The notes under the pieces are model-generated. The model worked only from the letters and a program-made list of their open reading frames with translations. It did not search any database and was not told where the DNA came from. Positions 1-16,569 of a stretch of DNA of 39,983 nucleotides are shown piece by piece. The first letter of the stretch is position 1. Every line of letters begins with the position of its first letter. The position numbers and the translations under genes were made by a program. The stretch comes from Snodgrassella alvi (GTDB lineage: Bacteria; Pseudomonadota; Gammaproteobacteria; Burkholderiales; Neisseriaceae). Where the stretch lies: positions 1 to 39,983 of the forward strand of contig NZ_MEIR01000035.1 in the NCBI RefSeq assembly GCF_002777825.1, written 5' to 3'.

Positions 1-1656
1 GCTGGGCAGATTGGCGAAAACTCCACCGATGCAGTTAATGCCGGACAGCTATACAGCATTTCATCTTCAATCTTCAGCTCAGTATCCAGTAGCGTTGAAA
101 ATGTAGTTAATGAAAACAAAATTAATATGGATGCTGTAAACCGAGATCTCAAAACTGCACAATCAGCCATTCAGACTGCGCAGAATGATATCCAGACCTC
201 GAAAAAACTGATTGAGGAATTGCAGAAAAATGCTGTGCATTTCGACGACGATGATGCAGGTTCACCCAGCCCCTTTGGGCTAACTCGTGATACCAGCAAT
301 GAAAGAACGATTAGTAATATTGCAAATGGCCGTGTTGATGCCACCTCTAATCAGGCAGTGAATGGCCGTCAGCTCTATGCGCTGTCTACTTCTACTTCGA
401 CTAGTCTGTCCAGCTTACAGGAGCAGTTGAATCTAGCATCTGGCAATATACCAGCAGGGTTGTCAACCTCTCTGAGCGCATTGCAGACAGACGCCCTGCA
501 ATGGAATGGCAATGCTTATGATGCCAGCCATCATTCTGGTAGCTCGCAGAAAATTACTAATCTTGCTATTGGTGATATTGGTGAACATTCAACGGATGCG
601 GTTAATGGCAGCCAGTTGTGGCAAATGAAAAATGATTTCAAACAGGATTTGCAAAACCTGTCTGATTCATTTGACAACAAGCTGGCTCAAAACAACAGTG
701 GCAGTACCGCAGCCATTAATGCAGCAACTGATAAAGCCAATCAGGCATTGGCCAAAGCGGACAGCCTGTCTACCTCTACAGCAAAGACGCTATCCAAAGT
801 GGCAAGCAGTCTGGGCGGCAATGCCAGCTATAATGCCGAAACGGGTAACTTTACCGCACCAAGCTACAGCAGCACCGCTGCTGATGGTACTGCACTTACA
901 GCCAATAATGTCGGTGATGCATTAACCAATCTGTACAACGGTGGCAGCAAGTATGCCAAAGTTAACTCTACCCTGAGTGTCGCTTCGGCAAGTGGCAATA
1001 ATGCTATTGCTGTAGGTGGTGCGGCTGTGGCCAGCGGCAATGCGGCTGTGGCCATCGGCGCAGAAGCCAAAGCCAGTGCCGCAGATGGAGTGGCCATTGG
1101 TAATCATGCCAGCGTTACCCAGAGTGGTGGTATTGCACTGGGTGCCAACTCTGTGGCGAATACAGCAGGCGGCATTATGGGCTATATTCCGGCAAGTGCC
1201 ACAGCGCAGCAGGCTCGTGCCATTCAGGCTACCACCAGCACCGAAGCAGCGGTTTCCGTAGGTGATGCTTCAAGAGGTATTTATCGCCAGATTACCGGTG
1301 TAGCCGCTGGTACAGAAGATACCGATGCCGTGAACGTCGCACAGCTCAAAGGCGTTAATGCCCGTATAGAAAACATTAACCAGTACGTCAACAATGTTAA
1401 CGACCGTATACAGCACGTAGAACGCCGTGCCTATTCCGGTACGGCACTGGCCATGGCGCTGTCAGGTGCCTATCTGCCACAGTTGAATGCCGGTGAGCAG
1501 ACTGTCGGCGTGGGTATGGGTTCCTACCATGGTTATACTGCCGTTGGTATTAACTATAAAGCCACAAACAACAGCGGTAAATTCTCATGGGGTGCAGGTG
1601 TCTCTACCACCGGTCATGAAACTGGCTTTAATGCAGGTGTCGGCTATAAATGGTAA
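1..1656 (+). CDS. Trimeric autotransporter adhesin (YadA-like), C-terminal part, cut by the window edge
   Basis: The frame is open from base 1, so the gene starts upstream of the window; 551 codons are visible and the methionine at 127 is not the real start. The visible part has long Ser/Ala/Asn-rich stalk stretches with repeated neck motifs of the type DAVNGSQLW (around bases 589-615, with relatives near 30-55 and 350-380). A YadA-head-like run of AIAVGG, AVAIGA, GVAIGN and GIALGA repeats lies at about 1000-1150. A last neck DAVNVAQLKG at about 1324-1353 is followed by a short coiled coil and a roughly 70-residue beta-barrel anchor ending in aromatic YKW. This is a type Vc secretion architecture: three chains form one outer-membrane barrel and display a fibrous adhesin. 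The ligand cannot be inferred because the N-terminal head is missing. A strong terminator follows directly, so this is the last gene of its transcript. Confidence 0.93.
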   Translation, partial: AGQIGENSTDAVNAGQLYSISSSIFSSVSSSVENVVNENKINMDAVNRDLKTAQSAIQTAQNDIQTSKKLIEELQKNAVHFDDDDAGSPSPFGLTRDTSNERTISNIANGRVDATSNQAVNGRQLYALSTSTSTSLSSLQEQLNLASGNIPAGLSTSLSALQTDALQWNGNAYDASHHSGSSQKITNLAIGDIGEHSTDAVNGSQLWQMKNDFKQDLQNLSDSFDNKLAQNNSGSTAAINAATDKANQALAKADSLSTSTAKTLSKVASSLGGNASYNAETGNFTAPSYSSTAADGTALTANNVGDALTNLYNGGSKYAKVNSTLSVASASGNNAIAVGGAAVASGNAAVAIGAEAKASAADGVAIGNHASVTQSGGIALGANSVANTAGGIMGYIPASATAQQARAIQATTSTEAAVSVGDASRGIYRQITGVAAGTEDTDAVNVAQLKGVNARIENINQYVNNVNDRIQHVERRAYSGTALAMALSGAYLPQLNAGEQTVGVGMGSYHGYTAVGINYKATNNSGKFSWGAGVSTTGHETGFNAGVGYKW

Positions 1657-4015: not shown

Positions 4016-4068
4016 TAGTCATCACCTGATTCATATTGATTTACATGACTAAAATAGGAAAATCAAGC

Positions 4069-4614
4069 ATGCTGTTACAAAAAATGGCCATCGCCAGTGC
4101 TGCCTTCGTATCCATGGCAGCCTTTGCTCAGGAATACCCTATGGGTAAACCCATCATCAAAAACGGAATGGAAATTTCTGGCGTATATCTGCCGCCCATC
4201 ACCATGGATACCGATGGTATGGATCACAGCAATATGCATCTGCCAGCCAGCAAATCCGACGTACACATGGAAGCAGACATCCATGCTACAGAAAGTAATC
4301 CAAACGGTTTTGCCGAAGGTGACTGGATTCCCAACTTGAATATCGAATATTCCATCACCAAACTGACTAAAGGCAAATTTACGCACTCAGGTAAATTCAT
4401 GTCCATGGTTGCCAATGACGGCCCACACTATGGCGACAACATCAAACTCAATGGTCTGGGCAAATACCGGGTTACCTACCGTATTTCACCGCCCACTGCC
4501 AATCAAATGGCGCGTCATATTGACAAAGAAACCGGCGTAGCACCGTGGTTCAAACCTTTTGAAGTTAGCTGGGACTTTGATTACGCCGGAGTAGGCCGCA
4601 AAGGTAGCTATTAA
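4069..4614 (+). CDS. P19-like periplasmic iron-transport protein (FetP/P19/Tp34 family)
   Basis: P19-family proteins are periplasmic, bind Cu and Fe at a His/Met/Glu/Asp site, and work with an FTR1-type permease in Campylobacter and in the E. coli FetMP system. The start chosen is ATG 4069 (MLLQKMAIASAAF), with AGGAA 8 bases upstream; in-frame starts at 4045 and 4036 lack a ribosome-binding site. The 181-aa product has a signal peptide with likely cleavage after AFA, then EYPMGKP, a Met/His/Asp-rich segment (MDTDGMDHSNMH), EADIHA, MVANDGPHYGDNI and YRVTYRISPP, all typical of P19. It is the first gene of a five-gene operon behind a Fur-like site, so iron repression is likely. The usual partner, an FTR1 permease, is two genes downstream. 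Confidence 0.9.
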   Translation: MLLQKMAIASAAFVSMAAFAQEYPMGKPIIKNGMEISGVYLPPITMDTDGMDHSNMHLPASKSDVHMEADIHATESNPNGFAEGDWIPNLNIEYSITKLTKGKFTHSGKFMSMVANDGPHYGDNIKLNGLGKYRVTYRISPPTANQMARHIDKETGVAPWFKPFEVSWDFDYAGVGRKGSY

Positions 4615-4629
4615 CAGCACCGTACAGTA

Positions 4630-4668
4630 AAGGGATTATTCTGGTTTTAATCAGTAGGATAATCCCTT
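4630..4668 (+). promoter_or_regulatory. Intra-operon stem-loop between the P19 gene and the cupredoxin gene
   Basis: A perfect 10-bp inverted repeat, AAGGGATTAT / ATAATCCCTT, has a 19-base loop. No T-run follows, so it is probably not a full terminator. It could stabilise the 3' end of the upstream message or weaken read-through, giving more P19 than downstream proteins. Confidence 0.5.
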
Positions 4669-4715
4669 AATACTTTGTCACTGCCACAATACCTTTTTCT
4701 GTAAGTGTATCCATC

Positions 4716-5051
4716 ATGAAAAAATTTTTTCTTACTGTCTTGAGTTTATGCAGCTTCATGCTTTCATATTCTGCGATTGCTGATGATAAAGTCACTCTGG
4801 AGCTGAAAATGAAAGATGGTGACATGATACCGTTAACCCTCAACGCACCAGCCAACAAAATTATTCGCATCAAAGTCACCAATATTGGCAAGGGGCCAGT
4901 TGAGTTTGAAAGCACCCAACTGGTAAAAGAAAAAGTACTGGCACCAGGAGCATCATCAGTGGTAGTGATTGCTCCGAAAAAACCCGGCACCTATATCTTT
5001 TTCGATGATTTCCATCTCAATAAGCCTAAAGGGCAGTTAATCATAAAATAA
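4716..5051 (+). CDS. Periplasmic cupredoxin-like protein (stand-alone EfeO N-domain type)
   Basis: The 111-aa protein has a signal peptide (MKKFFLTVLSLCSFMLSYSA, cleavage near AIADD) and one cupredoxin-like beta-sandwich: TLELKMKDG at the start, IRIKVTNIGKGPVEF in the middle and a C-terminal KPGTYIFFDDFH. This is the pattern of the N-terminal domain of EfeO. The mature part has no cysteine and a single histidine, so a type 1 copper site is absent; the acidic FFDDFH end could bind iron. In E. coli EfeO this domain is fused to an M75 domain; here the M75 protein is separate, two genes downstream. The gene lies 14 bases before the FTR1 permease gene, inside the operon. Confidence 0.82.
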   Translation: MKKFFLTVLSLCSFMLSYSAIADDKVTLELKMKDGDMIPLTLNAPANKIIRIKVTNIGKGPVEFESTQLVKEKVLAPGASSVVVIAPKKPGTYIFFDDFHLNKPKGQLIIK

Positions 5052-5065
5052 AAACGGGATATACC

Positions 5066-5896
5066 ATGGGACAAGTCATTTTTGTTGTCTGGCGAGAATG
5101 CTTCGAAGCACTGCTCGTAGTTGGCATTATTTATTCATGGATTAAACGCAATCCCGACAGCAGCAATGGCATGCGTTACCTGTTTGGCGGTGTAGGACTT
5201 GGTGTACTGATATCAGTCATACTGGCTATCATTATTAATGGCATATTTAAAGAGCTTACCGATGACCATCAAACAATATTTATGATGAGTATGTCTACAA
5301 TAGCCTGTGTACTAATTGTGCAGATGGTGTACTGGATGAACAAACACGCCCGTAGCATGAAATCCTCACTAGAGCAGGAAATGGCGCAGCAGGTAGCCCG
5401 CAATTCATGGTGGGGAGCACTATTCATTATAGCGATTGCCATTGCTCGCGAAGGCAGTGAAATCGTTGTATTCCTGTCTGGGCAAATCATGCAGCTCAAC
5501 AGCCATAATTACTTCAGCTTCTGCATTGCCGTACTAATCGGTATCGCCGTATCAGCCCTAACCTTCTATACCTTTATTCAGACCAGCCGCTTCATTCAGT
5601 GGAAAAAATTTTTTACCATAACCGGCATCATATTATTATTTCTGGCCATTTCATTACTGATGAAAGCAGTTGAAGATGGTACCAATATATTACTGGAACA
5701 TGACATATCCATCCCCGATTTCCTGATTAGCCCTGCATGGGATACCTCACCATTTATTGACGATAGCGGTTTGATTGGCGGCTTCGCTTCTTCACTGCTT
5801 GCCTACCGCTCCCAGCCAATGTGGATTAGCGTCATTACCTTTAGCGTATTCTGGCTGTTAATGGCCATACTGTTTTTAAGGAAGAAATCCACATGA
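5066..5896 (+). CDS. efeU: FTR1-family iron permease (EfeU-like)
   Basis: This inner-membrane permease carries ferric (or oxidised ferrous) iron into the cytoplasm. The 276-aa protein has about seven hydrophobic segments and both FTR1 iron-binding REXXE motifs: RECFE at residues 10-14 in the first helix and REGSE at 128-132. A conserved acidic/Gly region follows (WDTSPFIDDSGLIGGF). Length matches EfeU. It begins 14 bases after the cupredoxin stop, and its TGA overlaps the ATG of the M75 gene (ATGA at 5893-5896), so the two are probably translationally coupled. The neighbours give it both a P19-type and an EfeO-type periplasmic partner, so FetM-like or EfeU-like classification is equally defensible. 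Confidence 0.93.
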   Translation: MGQVIFVVWRECFEALLVVGIIYSWIKRNPDSSNGMRYLFGGVGLGVLISVILAIIINGIFKELTDDHQTIFMMSMSTIACVLIVQMVYWMNKHARSMKSSLEQEMAQQVARNSWWGALFIIAIAIAREGSEIVVFLSGQIMQLNSHNYFSFCIAVLIGIAVSALTFYTFIQTSRFIQWKKFFTITGIILLFLAISLLMKAVEDGTNILLEHDISIPDFLISPAWDTSPFIDDSGLIGGFASSLLAYRSQPMWISVITFSVFWLLMAILFLRKKST

Positions 5897-6783
5897 AGCT
5901 GCTCAGATACCTCGCCCTATTCCTTTGTTCGCTGCTACTGCCGGCAATTTCGGTAGCGCATGGCTTACGGGCGCCAATCATCAACGACACCAATGCAGTG
6001 ACAGCCAAGGGCGATATTCCCACTCCGGAAAAATACCATTCAGCCATTCAGGCTTATCAGCAACAGGTTGTCCAGCAACTGAAAACCACCCAGCAATATC
6101 TTGATGCCATCGTACATACCAGTCAGAACGGGCAATTATTACAGGCACAACAGAACTATATCCGCGCGCATCAAAGCTACGAACAGGTACGGGTTATTGT
6201 CAAACTGTTCGGTAATGCCGACCAGAACATCAATTCACGCGCCGACTACTATCTGCAAGGCGTTAGCAACCCTAACTTCAGCGGTTTTCACCGACTGGAA
6301 TATGAGCTGTTTGTACGCAAAGACCTCCAACAGGCACAGGCAGAAGCCAGTAATCTGCAATATGAAATTATTGATTTGCAGAAGCGGGTTGCGGCTGATG
6401 AGCTGGATATAGCCAAAATCATTCAATCCGCATCCGATTTTCTGGAAATGATTCTGCAAACCAAACTCTCTGGCAAAGAAAACCAGTACAGCCATAGCGA
6501 TTTAGCCGATATCCACGCTAATGTCATCGGTTCTGTCCAAATCGTACAGCAGCTTGCTGGCTTTATTCCGGCAGAACAACGTATCGCACTGGATAGCGGC
6601 TACCAGCAAATTTTTGCCGTGCTCCAACACTATCAGTTACCGCAGAATCAGTATCAGAACTTCACTGAACTGAGCCAGACTGACCATGACCGGCTGTATT
6701 CCCTGCTAAGCATTCAGACCAGTCGTCTGGCACAACTGCGAGCACAACTGGGCGTTCGTATTTATTACAAATACCCTCATTAA
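5893..6783 (+). CDS. efeO: M75-domain periplasmic iron-binding protein (EfeO/EfeM-like)
   Basis: The 296-aa protein has a signal peptide (cleavage near SVAHG) followed by an all-helical imelysin/M75 domain. The metal-binding HxxE motif is visible as FHRLEYE with H133 and E136. No cupredoxin domain is attached, so it resembles the short EfeM form; the missing domain is encoded separately at 4716. It should bind iron in the periplasm and pass it to the permease, whose gene it overlaps by four bases. A gap of 10 bases separates it from efeB. The architecture is clear; which iron form it binds is not visible. Confidence 0.9.
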   Translation: MKLLRYLALFLCSLLLPAISVAHGLRAPIINDTNAVTAKGDIPTPEKYHSAIQAYQQQVVQQLKTTQQYLDAIVHTSQNGQLLQAQQNYIRAHQSYEQVRVIVKLFGNADQNINSRADYYLQGVSNPNFSGFHRLEYELFVRKDLQQAQAEASNLQYEIIDLQKRVAADELDIAKIIQSASDFLEMILQTKLSGKENQYSHSDLADIHANVIGSVQIVQQLAGFIPAEQRIALDSGYQQIFAVLQHYQLPQNQYQNFTELSQTDHDRLYSLLSIQTSRLAQLRAQLGVRIYYKYPH

Positions 6784-6793
6784 GGTTCAAATT

Positions 6794-8083
6794 ATGCAAA
6801 AAAATACCTTCAGACACCAGCCAGAGTTAACTGCCACGCCTGAAGACAACCCTGCCAGTCCCAGTCGCCGCCACGGCATGAAAATGCTGCTGGCTGGAGG
6901 ATTGGGTATAGCCAGTATCGGCGTCAGCAATCCAGCCAGCGCAGCCAGCCGCTGTACTCACGATTACAATCAGGCAGTCGATTACTGGGGCAGCCATCAG
7001 GCCGGTGTAATCACACCTGATACCAAAGAAGCCATTTTTGTTGCCTTTAATGTCACCACACGGGAAAAATCCCAGCTACAACAGTTATTACAGCTTATTT
7101 CCCAGCGCATTGCCTATCTCACCCAGCCACAGACACTAACAACAGGCAAAAATGACCAACTGCCCCCGGTGGAATCTGGGCTGCTTGGCCATAACCTGTC
7201 ACCAGATTCGCTTACTATTACCGTAGCCGTAGGCGCCAGCTTGTTTGACCAGCGCTTTGGTCTGGCCAAACATAAACCGAAAAAACTAATTCCCATGCCA
7301 CGCTTTCCCAACGACCGACTGGAAAAAAACTGGTGTGGCGGAGACTTGTCGATTCAGCTATGTGCCAACAGCCGCGAAAGCGTAATTTATGCCCTGCGCG
7401 ATCTGATTAGCCACTGCAACCAGTTCATGATACCCGTTTGGAAAATGGATGGATTTCTGCCAGCACGCGATATCGACCAACACAACACTGCCATCAACCT
7501 GTTTGGCTTTAAAGATGGTACCGGCAATGCCTCCATTACCGATAGCAAACTGATGGACGAACTGGTATGGGTAACTGCCGACAATCATGAACCTGCATGG
7601 TGTCTGGGCGGCAGCTATCAGGCTATCCGCCTGATTCGCTTTAATCTAGAATTCTGGGACAGAACACCACTGGAAGATCAGGAAAACGATTTTGGCCGTT
7701 ACAAAACCAGCGGCGCCCCCATTGGCATGCAGCACGAAACAGATGACCCGCAGATGAATCGCGACCCGCATGGCGACCGCATCCTGTTCGATTCGCATAT
7801 GCGCCGTGCTGAACCACGTATTCCAGAACGGCATGTAGCCAAGCTGCGCCGGCGCAGCTTCAGTTACTCACTGGGCATCTTGCCCAGCGGCCAGCTTGAT
7901 ATGGGGCTGATTTTCGTTGCCTACCAGAATGACCTCAAAAAAGGCTTTATCGACACCCAAAACCGCCTCAACGGCGAACCACTGGAACGCTATATCAAAC
8001 CATTCGGTGGAGGCTTCTTCTTTGTCCTGCCGGGAATGGCCAGAGAAAACGATTATCTAGGCAAGCAGCTACTTGAAGGATAA
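6794..8083 (+). CDS. efeB: Tat-exported DyP-type heme peroxidase EfeB
   Basis: The 429-aa protein begins with a twin-arginine signal (SRRHGMKML, R25-R26, then a mild hydrophobic stretch ending in ASA), so it is exported folded with heme. The DyP signature GxxDG is present as GFKDG at 238-242. The probable proximal heme histidine is H335 in DSHMRRAEPR, and the C-terminal GGGFFFVLPG is typical of EfeB. In EfeUOB systems EfeB oxidises ferrous iron before import; release of iron from heme has also been proposed. It closes the five-gene operon. A weak terminator-like structure lies after it and pepN converges from the other side. Confidence 0.93.
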   Translation: MQKNTFRHQPELTATPEDNPASPSRRHGMKMLLAGGLGIASIGVSNPASAASRCTHDYNQAVDYWGSHQAGVITPDTKEAIFVAFNVTTREKSQLQQLLQLISQRIAYLTQPQTLTTGKNDQLPPVESGLLGHNLSPDSLTITVAVGASLFDQRFGLAKHKPKKLIPMPRFPNDRLEKNWCGGDLSIQLCANSRESVIYALRDLISHCNQFMIPVWKMDGFLPARDIDQHNTAINLFGFKDGTGNASITDSKLMDELVWVTADNHEPAWCLGGSYQAIRLIRFNLEFWDRTPLEDQENDFGRYKTSGAPIGMQHETDDPQMNRDPHGDRILFDSHMRRAEPRIPERHVAKLRRRSFSYSLGILPSGQLDMGLIFVAYQNDLKKGFIDTQNRLNGEPLERYIKPFGGGFFFVLPGMARENDYLGKQLLEG

Positions 8084-10867: not shown

Positions 10868-11304
10868 CTTCAATACTCTCAATATCCAAATCTATTCCAC
10901 CTATTGTACGGCTACCATACACACAATCAACCCCATCACCGCCGTGCACAGTAGCAACAACATTTCCGCCTTAAAATACAGCCATTATTACCCAGACTCA
11001 ATTCCTGCCATACATAATCTGTACCACTTGCATCAAACGGGTATTATTCATACCTACCCTGACAACCGCTATTGCCACCAATAACAAAATAATGTTAAAT
11101 CATTTAATATATAATTATATTATTTAAATAACCAAAATCGTTAATTTTAATTTGGTTCAAATACCGAATTATGATAAAAATACTGAATCCGTTAATCTAG
11201 GCTGTAAATTCCCAGTTAACTATAATAAGATAATTAGTATTTTCATTACTAAAAAATGCAACACTATCTATAAAAATTATTATATCGTGAATATTTTAAT
11301 AATA
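10868..11304. other. Intergenic stretch between pepN and the AT-rich cluster
   Basis: The half next to pepN has the base composition of the surrounding chromosome. From about 11085 leftover composition changes abruptly to extremely AT-rich, and that character continues through the four-gene cluster. The change may mark the edge of acquired DNA. No gene, tRNA, integrase or clear direct repeat is visible, and no good terminator is seen for the cluster. Confidence 0.5.
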
Positions 11305-12468
11305 TTATATTTTATTACTTAACTGAGTTGGTGCAAAATCTAAATCTTCAAAAATATCTTGAGAGTTTTCGAATCCAACAGATAAACGTACTAAATTATC
11401 ATCTATACCAAAAGCTTTTTTTTCTTGGTTAGTATACTTACAATGAGTTGTTGTCCCTGGATGAGTAATCAAAGAACGGGTTCCACCTATATTTGTACAA
11501 ATCTTAATTAATTTTAAAGAATTAATAAATTTAATTGTACCCATTTTATCTGTTTTAATTTTGAATGAAATTAAACCACCAAAGCCAGATTGCTGTTTTA
11601 TTATGATATCATTATTTTTCTCTATGCCAGTATAAAAAACTTTTTCAACCATATTATGTTGAATAAGTTTTTCAGCCAAAAACATTGCATTCTGCTGATG
11701 AGATTTCATTCTAATTTCTAATGTATCTGCACCAAATGATAATAGCCACGCATCAAATGCACTTAACGTAAATCCAACTGAACGTTGAATTTGTAAAAGC
11801 TGATTAATTAAATTATTACTACCGGCTACAGCTCCTGCCACAACTCTCCCTTGTCCATCAAAATACTTTCCTAATGAATTAATAACTAAATCAGCACCAT
11901 GCTTTAACGGCGATTGAAAAATAGGCGTCAAAATCGTATTATCAACTACTAATAGTATATTTTCTGGTATTTGTTTTTTAAGTTTACCAATATCATAAAC
12001 CCTCATAATAGGATTAGAAGGTGTTTCCAGTATAATCAATTTGGTATTTTGCGTAATATTAGTTATCCAAGATTCGGGGTTTTGAGGGGGTAATAATGTC
12101 GAAGTAATACCGAATTTGGAAAAAATTTTTCTAATTAAAACTGAAGTGGAACCAAATACTCCACCAGCAATTAAGACATTATCTCCTTGTTTAAGAAAAG
12201 TTAATGCAATTGCTGTATAAGTAGCCATTCCAGAAGCAAAACAAATTGCATCTTCTGCATTTTCTAAAATAGCAATCTTTTGCTCTAGCTCATTAACAGA
12301 GGGATTAGTAAATCTACTATAGATATTTCCATTTTCTTCACCAGTAAATCTTTTTTCAGCGGTATCTGCATTTTTAAAATTATATGCAGAGGTTAACCAA
12401 ATAGGAGAAGCATGTGATTCACCTAAATCATCTATTTGTTTGTGTAAAGATTTTGTAATTCGATCCAT
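11305..12468 (-). CDS. PLP-dependent transsulfuration-family enzyme, MetZ-like
   Basis: Cys/Met-metabolism PLP enzymes carry out beta/gamma elimination or gamma replacement on amino acids such as activated homoserine. The start chosen is ATG 12468 (MDRITKSLHK) with GAGAG close upstream; the TTG at 12486 is weaker. Visible in the 387-aa product: YSRFTNPS near residue 50 (Tyr and Arg that contact the neighbouring subunit's PLP), ASGMATY, ETPSNP, VVDN (PLP-ring Asp, about 176), and the Schiff-base lysine about 201 in NSLGKYFDGQGR. The DGQGR after the lysine is characteristic of O-succinylhomoserine sulfhydrylase (MetZ). The usual Thr just before the lysine is Gly here. It is last in a tight AT-rich operon with an HDO, an exporter and an acetyltransferase, so a specialised role is likelier than housekeeping methionine synthesis. 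Confidence 0.85.
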   Translation of the reverse strand: MDRITKSLHKQIDDLGESHASPIWLTSAYNFKNADTAEKRFTGEENGNIYSRFTNPSVNELEQKIAILENAEDAICFASGMATYTAIALTFLKQGDNVLIAGGVFGSTSVLIRKIFSKFGITSTLLPPQNPESWITNITQNTKLIILETPSNPIMRVYDIGKLKKQIPENILLVVDNTILTPIFQSPLKHGADLVINSLGKYFDGQGRVVAGAVAGSNNLINQLLQIQRSVGFTLSAFDAWLLSFGADTLEIRMKSHQQNAMFLAEKLIQHNMVEKVFYTGIEKNNDIIIKQQSGFGGLISFKIKTDKMGTIKFINSLKLIKICTNIGGTRSLITHPGTTTHCKYTNQEKKAFGIDDNLVRLSVGFENSQDIFEDLDFAPTQLSNKI

Positions 12469-12512
12469 AATACTCTCTATATGCAAAATATATGATTATC
12501 AAATTTTTATAT

Positions 12513-13736
12513 TCATTTAGAATTTAAATTAGTTTTTTTAAATGAAATTAACATTAATGATGATAATGCAGAAAGAAGTAACCAAAAAATTACTAAATAT
12601 AAAACAGGTAAGTAACTTCCTAAATATGTACGTAATAAACCACCAATCCATGCAGTCAAAAGCCCGCTTATTTGATGGAATAGAAAAATAATTCCAAACA
12701 TATATCCTTTAAAATCTTGACCGAATATATCGCCTGAAAGACGAGATATAATAATTACAGTACCCATATATGTAATACCAAAAACTATACTAAATAAAAG
12801 TAAAACGATTGGATATGGATACAATAAAACAAAAAACAATGCAAAGCATCGAACAAAAAAAAGTAAAGCCAAAAGTAAAGGTAAAGATTTATTTCTTGTT
12901 ATCAATAAACCAATTAATACACTACCAATAAATTCAAATATACCTAATAAACTTAAAGATGTACCCATAAATAATTTAGCAGATTGCGTATAATTTAGTA
13001 TCTCCTGCATAGTAGGAACAAAGTGGATATCAATAAAACTCATAGATGAACCACAGCCTGAGAAAGCTAGAATTAATAAAATTAACTTTCTATTAAAATA
13101 CCAATTTTTAGGAAGTGAAGTGAGTTTAGTTGTTTTATACTGTTGATTCAGATTATGACGACTAGCTGAACGAATATAAAATACCATTATTATCGATAAA
13201 GCCAAAAAAATATACGATAGAGTTGTACAAATTGCTCTCCACTTGACTATACCATTTAAATATATCCATAATGGAGATAATATAACAAAACCGATAGCAA
13301 TACCATTTGTTGTTATTGCATAAGCAATTGATCGTTTTGACGGAGTCACAAAATTATCTATTAATACGCTCACAGGTACAAAAGTCAGCGCTGAAATTGA
13401 ATATGCAGAAAACAGTACAAAGCCAATAATAAAACTAATAAAATTGTCACTGAATGCAAATATTGCAAACCCTACAAAAGCCATGAAAGTACCTGAAATC
13501 AAAACATATGGTGCTCCATAACGATCGCTTATCTTACCTACTACTGCAGAAAATAAACCTTGTGTTAAACCAAATAAACCACCCACTATAGCTAAATTTG
13601 TTACATTAGTATGATAATGTACAATCAGCTCTGAAAAATATACTTGATAAACTCCTTTAAGAGATGTGCTGATGAACATAATAAAAAAGCCGAATAAAAC
13701 AACTAATTCGGCTTTATATGAGCGTTTTGATTGCAT
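12513..13736 (-). CDS. MFS transporter, 12 membrane segments
   Basis: The 407-aa protein is a major facilitator with about twelve hydrophobic helices. The typical loop 2-3 signature is visible as GKISDRYGAPYVL, preceded by GLFGLTQGLFSAVVG. A good ribosome-binding site (AAGGGC) precedes the ATG. It lies 35 bases after the HDO gene and 44 before the PLP enzyme gene, so it is co-transcribed with enzymes of small-molecule metabolism. By position it most likely exports the product of the cluster; import of a precursor is the alternative. No substrate-specific motif is recognisable. Confidence 0.88.
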   Translation of the reverse strand: MQSKRSYKAELVVLFGFFIMFISTSLKGVYQVYFSELIVHYHTNVTNLAIVGGLFGLTQGLFSAVVGKISDRYGAPYVLISGTFMAFVGFAIFAFSDNFISFIIGFVLFSAYSISALTFVPVSVLIDNFVTPSKRSIAYAITTNGIAIGFVILSPLWIYLNGIVKWRAICTTLSYIFLALSIIMVFYIRSASRHNLNQQYKTTKLTSLPKNWYFNRKLILLILAFSGCGSSMSFIDIHFVPTMQEILNYTQSAKLFMGTSLSLLGIFEFIGSVLIGLLITRNKSLPLLLALLFFVRCFALFFVLLYPYPIVLLLFSIVFGITYMGTVIIISRLSGDIFGQDFKGYMFGIIFLFHQISGLLTAWIGGLLRTYLGSYLPVLYLVIFWLLLSALSSLMLISFKKTNLNSK

Positions 13737-13771
13737 ATCAAAGCCCTTATTATAAGATACAAATTTAGGTT

Positions 13772-14479
13772 TTATTTAATATATTGGTTGTATATTCCAG
13801 TATACATGTTATAAAACAATTGGCAAGTATAATCAACAGCTTTAATAGCTTCTTGCTGTAATTGTATAGTGACACAATAATCTTTTAATAAATCCAGACC
13901 TTGATTTACATGATGTACATCTTCTTTTTGATGGACTGAAAAAAACAATAAATCATCGTCTGTTAAGTTATATGCTTTTCCCAAAATATTATGCCTAGCA
14001 TTTTCACCAATTTTCTCAAGATTCTGTCCTTCGCTTGCTACTAATACTGCAGCAGCACCAATATGATAACAATTTTTATCATTACATGCATTTAATCTAT
14101 AATTGATTAAATCCATAGTATTAGGTAAAGGTTCAGCTTCATCACGTTCTTTATCCGAAATATGTATAGCACGCAAAAAATCCTGCATAAGAGTCATATG
14201 ATTCTTTGTCTTCGATAAATAACCGGTTTCTTCTTCAAATAAATTAAAAAGTAAATTTCGTTTATGCTCAGGAAGTGGACAATAAAAAAATAAACTTTCA
14301 ACATATCCAATAAAATATTTTGTTAATTGATACCCTTGTAGAGCAGTTAGCTTTAGTAAATCTAGTTGGGGATTATCAACGTCCATAATTATAGAAAACA
14401 ATGGATGAGATAAAGTTAAGTGTGATTCTAATGTTTGACGAAGAACAATTTTAAATTCATCTTTTGAATATAATTTCAT
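13772..14479 (-). CDS. Heme-oxygenase-like diiron oxidase (HDO; iron-containing redox enzyme family, CADD/BesC-like)
   Basis: The 235-aa all-helical protein shows a full set of candidate diiron ligands in the order found in HDOs such as Chlamydia CADD: E84 in EEETG, H94, E150 in ASEGQN, then H183, D187 and H190 in HQKEDVHH. Known HDOs include UndA (fatty acid decarboxylation), SznF and HrmI/BelK (N-oxygenation), BesC and PolF (oxidation of amino acid side chains) and CADD (p-aminobenzoate synthesis). PqqC and TenA share the fold but not this ligand set. A strong ribosome-binding site (GGGAGG) precedes the ATG and the gene lies 7 bases after the GNAT gene. The substrate cannot be read from sequence; the PLP-enzyme partner makes an amino acid plausible. 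Confidence 0.85.
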   Translation of the reverse strand: MKLYSKDEFKIVLRQTLESHLTLSHPLFSIIMDVDNPQLDLLKLTALQGYQLTKYFIGYVESLFFYCPLPEHKRNLLFNLFEEETGYLSKTKNHMTLMQDFLRAIHISDKERDEAEPLPNTMDLINYRLNACNDKNCYHIGAAAVLVASEGQNLEKIGENARHNILGKAYNLTDDDLLFFSVHQKEDVHHVNQGLDLLKDYCVTIQLQQEAIKAVDYTCQLFYNMYTGIYNQYIK

Positions 14480-14486
14480 AATAATT

Positions 14487-15053
14487 TTACCTCCCAGTAA
14501 ACCTTTTCAATTTATTTAAACCAATTTCCATAAAACAACCAGCATAACTTTCATCATCAATTCGAGAATAATCCAGCAGTTTCCCATATTCAGAAAAACC
14601 TATATATTTCCACATTTTATGCGCCTTACTATTTTCTCGGACATCTAAAACTATTTTGGAAATTCCATGATATTCAGCTTGAGATACAATTGCTCTAAAT
14701 AATTCTTTTAATACTGCAAGACTACGTTCCTCCTTTTTAATGATTCCCTTATGAATTTCACATATATGTGCCTTTGATGTATTTTTGAAATATCTTAATG
14801 ATACTGTAGCTATTAAACTAATATTTTTAAATACAAAAATTAACTCTAAAGATTTTGATTTTAATTCTTGTTTAATATTATCAATATATAAATTATAAAT
14901 ATCATTATCCAATGGTTTTGTAAAACCAAGTATAAAATTATCTTCAATAGAAGAATTAATCAGCTTTATATAATCCAGTACGTATTGATCAAACAATAGA
15001 TTATCATTAATAATTTTTAATTTATAACTTTCATTTATATTGGTAGTATTCAT
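14487..15053 (-). CDS. GNAT-family N-acetyltransferase
   Basis: The 188-aa protein has the GNAT core in its C-terminal two thirds: beta-strand 4 (ICEIHKGI), the acetyl-CoA loop region (KKEERSLAVLKEL, less canonical than the usual RxxGxG), beta-strand 5 (KIVLDVRENSKA) and the late HKMWKYIGFSEYG that closes many GNAT domains. It has an ideal AGGAGG ribosome-binding site and is the first gene of the four-gene AT-rich operon, 7 bases before the HDO gene. It may acetylate the pathway product or an intermediate (biosynthesis or self-protection). Substrate unknown. Confidence 0.82.
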   Translation of the reverse strand: MNTTNINESYKLKIINDNLLFDQYVLDYIKLINSSIEDNFILGFTKPLDNDIYNLYIDNIKQELKSKSLELIFVFKNISLIATVSLRYFKNTSKAHICEIHKGIIKKEERSLAVLKELFRAIVSQAEYHGISKIVLDVRENSKAHKMWKYIGFSEYGKLLDYSRIDDESYAGCFMEIGLNKLKRFTGR

Positions 15054-15112
15054 ATATCTGTTCCTCCTAATTTAAATTTACAATAAATCACACATATATT
15101 AAAGACCGTTTT

Positions 15113-15128
15113 TTTATAAGCTTATAAA
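15113..15128. promoter_or_regulatory. 16-bp perfect palindrome in the divergent promoter region
   Basis: TTTATAAGCTTATAAA is centred between 15120 and 15121, in the 115-bp region shared by the GNAT gene (minus) and cycA (plus). T-runs flank it on both sides. It has the form of an operator for a dimeric regulator, although A/T-rich palindromes can arise by chance. Confidence 0.4.
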
Positions 15129-15168
15129 TTTTTTTTATTTAAAATTAATCCTTAACAAAGGAAATACT

Positions 15169-16569
15169 ATGACCAAGTCTTCTGAATTAAAACGCACATT
15201 GAAAAACCGACATCTACAACTAATTGCCATCGGCGGTGCAATCGGTACCGGCCTTTTTATGGGTTCAGGCCGCACCATCAGCCTGGCTGGGCCATCCGTA
15301 CTGTTTACCTACATCATCATCGGCGCATTCTTGTTTTTCGTTATGCGTGCCATGGGTGAACTGCTGTTGCACAATCTGCATTACAAATCCTTTGTCGACT
15401 TCACCACCGATATTCTTAATCCTACTGTCGGCTATTATGTTGGCTGGTCATACTGGTTCTGCTGGGTCGTAATTGGCATGGCCGATATCGTAGCCATTAC
15501 CGGTTATACCCAGTTCTGGTGGCCAGAAGTACCACTCTGGCTGCCCGGTATCATATGCATTATTGTCCTGCTGGCACTGAATCTGTTATCCGTCAAACTG
15601 TTTGGTGAGCTGGAATTCTGGTTTGCCTTGATCAAAATTCTGGCTATTCTGGCGCTGATTGGCTGTGGCGGCTATCTGTTACTCAATGGCTTTGTCAGCT
15701 CCAGCGGTATTCAGGCACGAATCAGCAATTTATGGACTTATGGAGGCTGGATGCCACATGGCTGGAGCGGTTTTTTTGCTGCCTTTCAGATTGCCATCTT
15801 CGCTTTTGTCGGTATTGAGCTCGTTGGCACAGCATCAGCCGAAACAGACGACCCTAATACCACCTTGCCAGCCGCCATCAACAAAATACCGGTGCGCGTG
15901 ATTGTCTTTTATGTACTGGCCTTAACCATCATCATGACAGTTACCCCGTGGAGCATGGTTGCGCCAGACCGCAGTCCGTTCGTCAACATGTTCACCTTGA
16001 TTGGCATTAGTGGCGCAGCCACCATTATTAATTTTGTCGTACTGACTTCCGCCATGTCTTCTGCCAATAGCGGCATGTATTCCACCGGCCGCATGCTATA
16101 CGGCCTATCAAGAAACGGTGTTGGCCCGAAGGCCTTCGCGCAGCTATCAGCTACAGGCGTGCCACAAAACGGCCTGATCTATTCCTGCGCCCTGCTGCTG
16201 ATTGGTGTTGGTCTGCTCTATGCCGAGGGTGATGTCATGAAAGTATTTACCATCGTCACCACCGTATCCAGTATCTGCTTTATCTTTGTCTGGGCAGTTA
16301 TCCTGATTGCCTACCTTCGTTATCGCAAGCTCTATCCAGAGGCACATGCCCGCTCAGTCTACAAAATGCCTTTTGGCATACCGATGTGCTATGTCTGCCT
16401 GATATTCTTTGTATTTGTGCTGTATCTGTTCACTCAGGATAAAGATACCCTTACCGGCTTAATAGCTACACCTGTCTGGTTTATTCTGCTAACCATGCTC
16501 CTGCCCCTGTATCGCCTGCAACTGAAAAAACGCATCACCTATTCAGATACCACCAGCACCAACCAGTAA
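15169..16569 (+). CDS. cycA: Amino acid permease CycA (D-serine/D-alanine/glycine transporter)
   Basis: This is an inner-membrane APC-superfamily proton symporter. The 466-aa sequence follows E. coli CycA closely through its length: HLQLIAIGGAIGTGLFMGSG in the first helix, ISLAGPS, MRAMGELLL, YWFCWVV, FAFVGIELVGT, the ETDDP motif, VVLTSAMSSANSGMYST and a conserved YKMPFG near the C-terminus. About twelve hydrophobic helices are visible. A ribosome-binding site (AAAGGAAA) precedes the ATG. It has the normal base composition of the chromosome, unlike the cluster it diverges from. It is a single gene followed by a good terminator. Confidence 0.93.
   Translation: MTKSSELKRTLKNRHLQLIAIGGAIGTGLFMGSGRTISLAGPSVLFTYIIIGAFLFFVMRAMGELLLHNLHYKSFVDFTTDILNPTVGYYVGWSYWFCWVVIGMADIVAITGYTQFWWPEVPLWLPGIICIIVLLALNLLSVKLFGELEFWFALIKILAILALIGCGGYLLLNGFVSSSGIQARISNLWTYGGWMPHGWSGFFAAFQIAIFAFVGIELVGTASAETDDPNTTLPAAINKIPVRVIVFYVLALTIIMTVTPWSMVAPDRSPFVNMFTLIGISGAATIINFVVLTSAMSSANSGMYSTGRMLYGLSRNGVGPKAFAQLSATGVPQNGLIYSCALLLIGVGLLYAEGDVMKVFTIVTTVSSICFIFVWAVILIAYLRYRKLYPEAHARSVYKMPFGIPMCYVCLIFFVFVLYLFTQDKDTLTGLIATPVWFILLTMLLPLYRLQLKKRITYSDTTSTNQ

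What the first reader, a model, noticed from the sequence alone, without database searches (positions are those of the whole stretch)
11305..15053. AT-rich four-gene operon: GNAT, HDO diiron oxidase, MFS exporter, MetZ-like PLP enzyme
Seen: four tightly spaced minus-strand genes (gaps of 7, 35 and 44 bases), each with its own good ribosome-binding site, in DNA much poorer in G+C than the flanks (7 of 60 G/C at 14821-14880 against 25 of 60 at 16021-16080 in cycA). The HDO keeps all six candidate iron ligands. Established: HDOs such as BesC, PolF, SznF, HrmI and UndA modify amino acids or fatty acids in natural-product pathways; in the beta-ethynylserine pathway an HDO works with a gamma-eliminating PLP enzyme of the same broad family as the one here. 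Inference: the operon makes a small amino-acid-derived compound (for example an unsaturated or nitrogen-oxidised antimetabolite), acetylates it and exports it. I know of no described pathway with exactly this four-gene set.
Basis: partly seen in the sequence, partly recalled or inferred. Interest (0 to 1): 0.78.

Follow-up and report, generated by a model that had tools for sequence, protein, structure and literature searches.

The report
Mobile four-gene diiron-oxidase metabolite operon
A compact, apparently horizontally acquired set of four genes, found in the same order in distantly related bacteria, probably makes and exports an unusual amino acid using an iron enzyme and a repurposed methionine-pathway enzyme, but what it makes is not yet known.

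Summary
In detail: four minus-strand genes (GNAT, HDO, MFS, MetZ-like PLP enzyme; 11305-15053) lie in DNA of 28% G+C (GC3 0.15-0.17 against 0.45-0.57 in three nearby genes). The same four genes in the same order occur in Bacterioplanes sanyensis, another genome of its order and three genomes of family f184, and reshuffled in a seventh. Related HDO-GNAT pairs sit with an SbnA-like PLP enzyme (8 of 18 HDO loci) or a nicotianamine-synthase-like enzyme (1 of 18). The HDO is not a p-aminobenzoate synthase: the sacrificial Lys is replaced in 15 of 15 aligned members and the Tyr in 14 of 14 with an intact N-terminus, while six candidate metal ligands stay. The PLP enzyme is not the housekeeping MetZ (separate at 99/98 support) and has Gly, not Thr, before its PLP lysine (7 of 7; 28 of 28 other rows have Thr). 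Of 14 genomes of the genus only this one has the HDO; three keep just a 50-53% identical MFS gene at the locus. Best reading: a mobile pathway to a non-proteinogenic, perhaps antimetabolite, amino acid that the MFS exports. Product, order of steps and acylation are inferred. My paper searches found no earlier description.

The parts
14487..15053 (-). GNAT-fold acyltransferase, 188 aa
   Evidence: Pfam Acetyltransf_1 22.4 bits (cut-off 20.7). A profile of 8 cluster GNATs matches the tabtoxin resistance acetyltransferase 1ghe best in the PDB, E 1.1e-16. Linked to the HDO at 16 of 18 HDO loci.
13772..14479 (-). Heme-oxygenase-like dimetal oxidase (HDO), 235 aa; the hallmark gene
   Evidence: Pfam Haem_oxygenas_2 E 4e-19; six ligand positions invariant, pABA residues lost; 66% identical to the Bacterioplanes HDO.
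12513..13736 (-). MFS transporter, 407 aa
   Evidence: Pfam MFS_1 E 8e-29; 31-35% identical to MFS proteins of the same cluster elsewhere, 51-53% to the MFS-only proteins of three species of the genus.
11305..12468 (-). MetZ-derived Cys/Met-type PLP enzyme, 387 aa, with Gly200-Lys201 at the PLP site
   Evidence: Pfam Cys_Met_Meta_PP E 5e-113; separate from the genome's own MetZ (L043) and Gly before Lys in 7 of 7 cluster enzymes.
11087..15156 (.). Stretch that replaces the corresponding pepN-cycA interval of the close relative G002
   Evidence: Flank homology to G002 ends near 11086 and resumes near 15157.

Best explanation
The operon is a compact, horizontally acquired, stand-alone pathway for a non-proteinogenic amino acid, probably an antimetabolite. 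Shown: the gene set is conserved; the HDO keeps its metal ligands and is not a pABA synthase; the PLP enzyme is a dedicated MetZ paralogue; in related clusters its place is taken by an SbnA-like PLP enzyme or a nicotianamine-synthase-like enzyme. Inferred: the PLP enzyme takes an activated homoserine (O-succinyl-, O-acetyl- or O-phosphohomoserine) and joins its four-carbon amino-acid unit to a heteroatom nucleophile; the HDO uses Fe and O2 to desaturate or N-oxidise either the nucleophile or the product; the GNAT acylates the free amine as a protecting or self-protection step; the MFS carries the product out.
For: Same four genes in the same order in L002, L012, L017, L018 and L099, reshuffled in L100 with a DUF2817 gene. 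HDO: 15 of 15 keep six ligands, Lys replaced in 15 of 15, Tyr in 14 of 14 with an intact N-terminus; the pABA-synthase-like control L004 keeps both. PLP: MetZ rows are split from cluster rows at 99/98; Gly before the PLP Lys in 7 of 7 cluster rows, Thr in 28 of 28 others, of which 26 differ; the genome has its own MetZ-clade enzyme. Partner swap: SbnA-like enzyme (TIGR03945, 320 bits against a cut-off of 350) in 8 of 18 HDO loci, beside PKS or NRPS genes where read; NAS-like enzyme in 1. By established family knowledge (recalled) SbnA forms a C-N bond from an activated serine, NAS transfers an aminobutyrate unit from SAM, and MetZ enzymes do gamma-replacement. GNAT profile nearest tabtoxin resistance acetyltransferase. 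HDOs elsewhere act on amino acids or peptides (PMC13108848, PMC13185094).
Against: No product is known. GNAT position 6 of the acetyl-CoA loop, Gly/Ala in the usual motif (recalled), is Leu/Ile/Val/Phe in 16 of 16 counted from the Arg, so acetylation is not assured. Nothing shows the direction of transport. The tabtoxin-resistance match rests on the profile; the window GNAT alone matches only general families weakly. One HDO locus (L007) stands alone and one cluster (L019) is decayed. With seven cluster PLP rows, the cluster's own monophyly is unresolved at an open fork; it is 90/84 with five rows.
Confidence: 0.55

Rival explanations
1. A small metallophore pathway: the PLP enzyme builds an N-linked multi-amino-acid chelator, HDO and GNAT turn an amine into an acylated hydroxylamine (hydroxamate), and the MFS exports it.
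For: In G049 the HDO lies next to a nicotianamine-synthase-like gene (Pfam NAS, E 7e-18), the family that makes opine metallophores (recalled); SbnA (8 of 18 loci) serves staphyloferrin B synthesis (recalled); in Bacterioplanes the cluster lies next to genes that look by eye like a siderophore synthetase, lysine hydroxylase and decarboxylase (not checked with a profile).
Against: No receptor, no uptake gene and no Fur-type control was seen beside the window operon, though I did not search for a Fur box. Five of six other MetZ-type clusters do not have the siderophore genes within the stretch read by eye. SbnA-like enzymes also serve antibiotics.
Confidence: 0.2
2. A BesC/BesB-like route: the HDO cleaves or desaturates an amino acid and the PLP enzyme then does a gamma-elimination or rearrangement to an unsaturated amino acid.
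For: MboA shows that HDOs can desaturate side chains to alkynes (PMC13185094).
Against: No halogenase or ligase gene in the operon. BesC (7twa) is only a marginal match even to the HDO profile, E 0.25. The PLP enzyme's best relatives are O-succinylhomoserine sulfhydrylases, and its place is elsewhere taken by SbnA-like and NAS-like enzymes that form bonds.
Confidence: 0.15
3. A detoxification or uptake unit: GNAT and MFS inactivate and move a foreign antimetabolite and HDO and PLP enzyme degrade it.
For: GNAT profile resembles a resistance acetyltransferase; three species of the genus keep only an MFS gene at this locus, which could be immunity or uptake.
Against: In SbnA-type relatives the HDO-GNAT pair lies beside acyl-AMP ligase, PKS or NRPS genes, which is biosynthetic.
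Confidence: 0.08
4. Housekeeping: p-aminobenzoate synthase plus an ordinary MetZ.
For: The HDO's best solved relatives are 4-aminobenzoate synthases (9pj4 E 6e-11; CADD 3e-6), and TIGR04305 (CADD) is its only NCBIfam hit.
Against: TIGR04305 75 bits against a cut-off of 200; essential Tyr and Lys lost, four extra residues between the first Glu and His ligands; HDO absent from 13 of 14 genomes of the genus; separate MetZ-clade enzyme in the genome.
Confidence: 0.02

Closest known systems
Self-sacrificing p-aminobenzoate synthases CADD and NePabS
   Same: Closest sequence relatives with solved structures; same fold family and the same H-x3-D-x2-H ligand motif.
   Different: Tyr and Lys that become pABA are replaced; first-helix ligand spacing is four residues longer.
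SznF-type N-oxygenating HDOs
   Same: E-x9-H then H-x3-D-x2-H spacing: E84-H94 and H183-D187-H190 here, E215-H225 and H311-D315-H318 in SznF (numbers from passages of PMC11705231).
   Different: No detectable sequence match to SznF in the PDB searches; no cupin domain; N-oxidation not shown. E61, in 13 of 15 rows, might or might not be an extra ligand.
Mangotoxin (mbo) HDO pathway
   Same: HDO at the heart of a small amino-acid-based antimetabolite pathway (PMC13185094, abstract and parts of Results).
   Different: mbo uses peptide ligases and a dedicated reductase MboB; MboA ligands are E86-H89; none of these partners is in this operon.
O-succinylhomoserine sulfhydrylase (MetZ)
   Same: Nearest family of the PLP enzyme (406 bits; best PDB 9iqh).
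   Different: Below the NCBIfam cut-off of 522; split from MetZ rows at 99/98; Gly replaces the Thr before the PLP lysine.
Tabtoxin resistance acetyltransferase
   Same: Best PDB match of the GNAT profile, E 1.1e-16, over nearly the whole domain.
   Different: The Gly-rich acetyl-CoA loop kept there (RGRGLG) is not kept here; substrate unknown.
SbnA / nicotianamine synthase amino-acid-linking enzymes
   Same: Take the place of the MetZ-like enzyme next to the same HDO-GNAT pair.
   Different: Different folds and donors (recalled); not present in the window operon.

Membership tests
Heme-oxygenase-like dimetal oxidase (HDO) | Three His and three carboxylate ligands in the usual order | tested here: met
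   E84 (or E83), H94, E150, H183, D187, H190 invariant in 15 of 15; motifs kept in 3 further loci.
Heme-oxygenase-like dimetal oxidase (HDO) | Family profile match | tested here: met
   PF14518 69.5 bits, cut-off 28.9.
Heme-oxygenase-like dimetal oxidase (HDO) | Seven-helix fold | tested here: inconclusive
   AlphaFold2 with two sequences gave mean pLDDT 41.7; mostly helical but unusable.
Heme-oxygenase-like dimetal oxidase (HDO) | Diiron centre and O2 chemistry | not testable with these tools
   Needs protein.
CADD/NePabS p-aminobenzoate synthase | Sacrificial Tyr (Y27/Y25) and Lys (K152/K159) (PMC11965152, passages) | tested here: not met
   Window has F28 and R162 in the script alignment; the HMMER pairing puts A161 opposite the CADD Lys. 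Either way no Lys. L004 control keeps Y26 and K160.
CADD/NePabS p-aminobenzoate synthase | NCBIfam TIGR04305 above cut-off | tested here: not met
   75.2 bits, cut-off 200.
O-succinylhomoserine sulfhydrylase (MetZ) | Cys/Met PLP fold and PLP lysine | tested here: met
   PF01053 378 bits; K201.
O-succinylhomoserine sulfhydrylase (MetZ) | Falls inside the MetZ clade / above equivalog cut-off | tested here: not met
   Split at 99/98; 406 of 522 bits and 370 of 510 bits.
Beta-ethynylserine (Bes) pathway | Halogenase and ligase partners beside the HDO and gamma-lyase (recalled) | tested here: not met
   Only four genes between pepN and cycA; the rest of the genome was not searched for them.
Tabtoxin resistance acetyltransferase | Sequence similarity over the domain | tested here: met
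   Profile match E 1.1e-16, by profile of 8 sequences.
Tabtoxin resistance acetyltransferase | Canonical acetyl-CoA loop and tabtoxin as substrate | tested here: not met
   Loop atypical in 16 of 16; substrate not testable here.
Opine or siderophore-type metallophore pathway | Metal-regulated operon with chelator synthase and uptake receptor | not tested
   No Fur-box scan was made; no receptor gene among the four.

The most novel reading that the evidence does not exclude
A new modular way to make unusual amino acids: a constant HDO-GNAT pair is combined with an interchangeable donor enzyme (MetZ-like for a C4 unit, SbnA-like for a C3 unit, nicotianamine-synthase-like for a C4 unit from SAM), giving either a free exported amino acid (MFS form, as here) or a building block for PKS/NRPS lines. 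The MetZ-derived branch has changed its PLP-phosphate pocket (Thr to Gly beside the lysine). Related species that keep only the MFS gene would then be immune or product-using neighbours of producers.
Probability: 0.3. Interest if true: 0.8.

Novelty: new variant of a known kind. Interest (0 to 1): 0.62.

Why it matters
Only about a dozen HDOs have a known reaction (PMC13108848), against thousands of sequences. This is a small, complete-looking, mobile four-gene set around an uncharacterised HDO subfamily, with natural variants that swap just one enzyme: a practical way to find a new reaction. It also offers a clean test of how a methionine-biosynthesis enzyme was recruited to a specialised pathway (one diagnostic residue beside the PLP lysine), and a natural comparison between producers and MFS-only relatives at one chromosomal locus.

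Tried and rejected
Viral contigs: two scans, no relative. Plasmids: two Caballeronia records at 24.8% identity only. Promoter scan: 32 sites against 31.4 expected by shuffling, so uninformative; the two terminator-like sites lie inside genes. Rhizobitoxine analogy (MetZ-type domain making an enol ether that is then desaturated; recalled): considered, papers seen only as a listing, not kept because the SbnA-like and NAS-like replacements fit C-N bond formation at least as well. pABA synthesis: rejected. Ordinary MetZ: rejected.

Limits of the counts: the genome search was used 12 times with different thresholds (1e-3 to 1e-60) and overlapping sets; 18 HDO loci in 17 genomes are what those calls and one search returned, not a census. 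L019 was dropped from the tree, because its N-terminus is replaced; the sequence of L004 was kept as a control.
Full report
What is there. The window holds four minus-strand genes between pepN and cycA: GNAT 15053-14487, HDO 14479-13772, MFS 13736-12513 and a Cys/Met-type PLP enzyme 12468-11305, with gaps of 7, 35 and 44 bases. Their G+C is 0.284, GC3 0.153-0.172, against GC3 of 0.451, 0.567 and 0.549 in pepN, cycA and the gene at 6794-8083. GNAT and HDO have strong ribosome-binding sites, MFS and PLP weaker ones.

It is a conserved unit. A scan of the genome-contig collection (one genome per 84,980 species; close relatives only) returned one relative of the HDO, in Bacterioplanes sanyensis (L002, 67%), with the same four genes in the same order and strand. 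Whole-genome searches returned more: class of the window 369 genomes, one further genome (G049, two copies) plus a pABA-synthase-like protein in G336; family 83 genomes, own only; genus 14 genomes, own only; phylum 398 genomes, G758; genus of G758, 5 of 60; family of G758, 11 of 398, those five included; order of G049, 1 of 3, G049 itself; order of the Bacterioplanes genome, 4 of 390, itself included. Together 18 HDO loci in 17 genomes. The thresholds differ between calls.

Neighbours of the 18 loci. GNAT-HDO-MFS-PLP in this order: window, L002, L012, L017, L018, L099. GNAT-PLP-HDO-DUF2817-MFS: L100. HDO and MFS only, with no GNAT or PLP match in the stretch: L019, whose HDO frame begins with what looks like the start of a GNAT and lacks the HDO N-terminus. 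GNAT, HDO and SbnA-like enzyme: L020, L046-L051, L101, eight loci; in L020 with acyl-AMP ligases and a PKS, in L101 with an NRPS. HDO, nicotianamine-synthase-like enzyme and GNAT: L006. HDO alone: L007. So the GNAT accompanies the HDO at 16 of 18 loci and is the constant partner. In L012 GNAT and HDO form one open frame. A GlxA-type AraC-family regulator lies near the clusters of L002 and L012 (Pfam) and L099, and by similarity to these or by eye near L017, L018 and L019; none flanks the window operon.

The HDO. Pfam places it in Haem_oxygenas_2. Its nearest solved relatives are 4-aminobenzoate synthases (9pj4, CADD). But in the alignment of 15 subfamily members and the control L004 the Lys position is Arg in 15 of 15 and the Tyr position is Phe, Leu or Val in 14 of 14 with an intact N-terminus (L019, the 15th, has an unrelated N-terminus), while L004 keeps both. 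The HMMER pairing puts Ala161 rather than Arg162 opposite the CADD Lys; neither is Lys. The roles of these residues come from passages of PMC11965152. All six candidate metal ligands are invariant. A four-residue longer spacing makes the first pair E84-x9-H94, as in SznF E215-H225 (passages of PMC11705231), not the shorter spacing of the pABA synthases. This hints at, but does not show, N-oxidation. E61 is present in 13 of 15 rows.

The PLP enzyme. Its best family is O-succinylhomoserine sulfhydrylase, below the cut-off (406 of 522 bits). The genome has two other good relatives, 37% and 34% identical, and one weak match. In a tree of 33 rows the five cluster enzymes form one side of a branch at 90/84, next to a clade that holds the genome's own MetZ-like L043. 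In a 21-row tree the ten MetZ rows split from the seven cluster rows at 99/98; the cluster rows themselves then come off an open fork, so their single origin is not resolved. The residue before the PLP lysine is Gly in 7 of 7 cluster rows and Thr in 28 of 28 other rows, two pairs of which are identical. The window row is a long branch of unusual composition, and the tool warns of this.

The GNAT. A profile of eight cluster GNATs finds the tabtoxin resistance acetyltransferase as its best solved relative, E 1.1e-16. Against a simple reading, the sixth residue of the acetyl-CoA loop counted from the Arg is Leu, Ile, Val or Phe in 16 of 16, where the usual motif (recalled) has Gly or Ala. On its own the window protein matches only RimI-like and general GNAT models below or near cut-offs.

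History. The HDO tree groups the window with Bacterioplanes and G1537 (99/96), not with the three genomes of its own order that carry the same cluster; with the low G+C this points to horizontal acquisition. In L012, L017 and L018 too the cluster is poorer in G+C (0.56-0.57) than its locus (0.66). At the pepN-cycA interval of the 13 other genomes of the genus: three (G001, G004, G005) have an intact MFS gene of 430-433 aa, 50-53% identical to the window's, at ordinary G+C; two (G002, G003) have short MFS remnants; seven show no match to the four proteins; in one (G012) the contig ends too early to tell. So the resident lineage once had an MFS gene there, and this genome carries a full AT-rich cluster in its place.

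How it most likely works. Shown: conserved unit, HDO metal ligands, loss of the pABA residues, dedicated PLP paralogue, interchangeable third partner. Inferred: the PLP enzyme makes or joins a C4 amino-acid unit (SbnA-like and NAS-like enzymes, recalled as C-N bond makers with C3 and C4 donors, stand in its place elsewhere), the HDO oxidises the nucleophile or the product, the GNAT acylates, the MFS exports. In SbnA-type relatives the product would feed PKS or NRPS lines; here it would leave as a free amino acid. My confidence is 0.55 for this class of explanation and low for the exact chemistry.

Novelty. Paper searches with terms for HDOs, GNAT, MFS, cystathionine enzymes, SbnA, nicotianamine synthase, Snodgrassella and Burkholderia listed no description of this set; the library lacks most subscription journals. 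Of PMC13185094 I saw the abstract, the first part of Results and the crystallography section; of PMC13108848 the abstract and three sections; of PMC11965152 and PMC11705231 passages; of PMC13232832 the abstract and outline; the rest only as listings. HDO-centred pathways are a known kind; this subfamily and its partner logic are a new variant.

Noticed in passing
L056:4501-5793, L057:4812-6113, L058:965-2266: Three species of the same genus keep an intact MFS gene alone between pepN and cycA, 50-53% identical to the operon's MFS; possible immunity or uptake without synthesis.
   Followed up: partly
L052 and L054, pepN-cycA interval: Short decayed pieces of the same MFS gene in G002 and G003.
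   Followed up: partly
L012:9014-10321: GNAT and HDO in one open frame of 435 codons in G758: natural fusion or sequencing indel.
   Followed up: partly
L019:8394-11608: Decayed cluster in G852: HDO frame starts with a GNAT-like stretch and lacks its N-terminus, MFS intact, no PLP enzyme in the stretch.
   Followed up: partly
L100:8250-9344: DUF2817 gene between HDO and MFS in G1462, a possible deacylase partner.
   Followed up: no
L020 and L046-L051: Seven genomes share an HDO-GNAT-SbnA-like cluster with 68-75% identical GNAT and SbnA-like proteins; in L020 it also holds an amidohydrolase, acyl-AMP ligases and a PKS; product unknown to me.
   Followed up: partly
L002:634-7053: Divergent from the Bacterioplanes cluster lie genes that look by eye like an NIS siderophore locus.
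   Followed up: no
L004:1264-2019: Likely self-sacrificing pABA synthase (Tyr and Lys kept) in G336, a genome of the window's order, behind a gene that looks by eye like a cobalamin-independent methionine synthase.
   Followed up: no
window 4036-8083: Genes that look by eye like a P19/FTR1/EfeO/EfeB-type iron uptake set, separated from the operon by pepN.
   Followed up: no
window 127-1656: ORF that looks by eye like a trimeric autotransporter adhesin.
   Followed up: no
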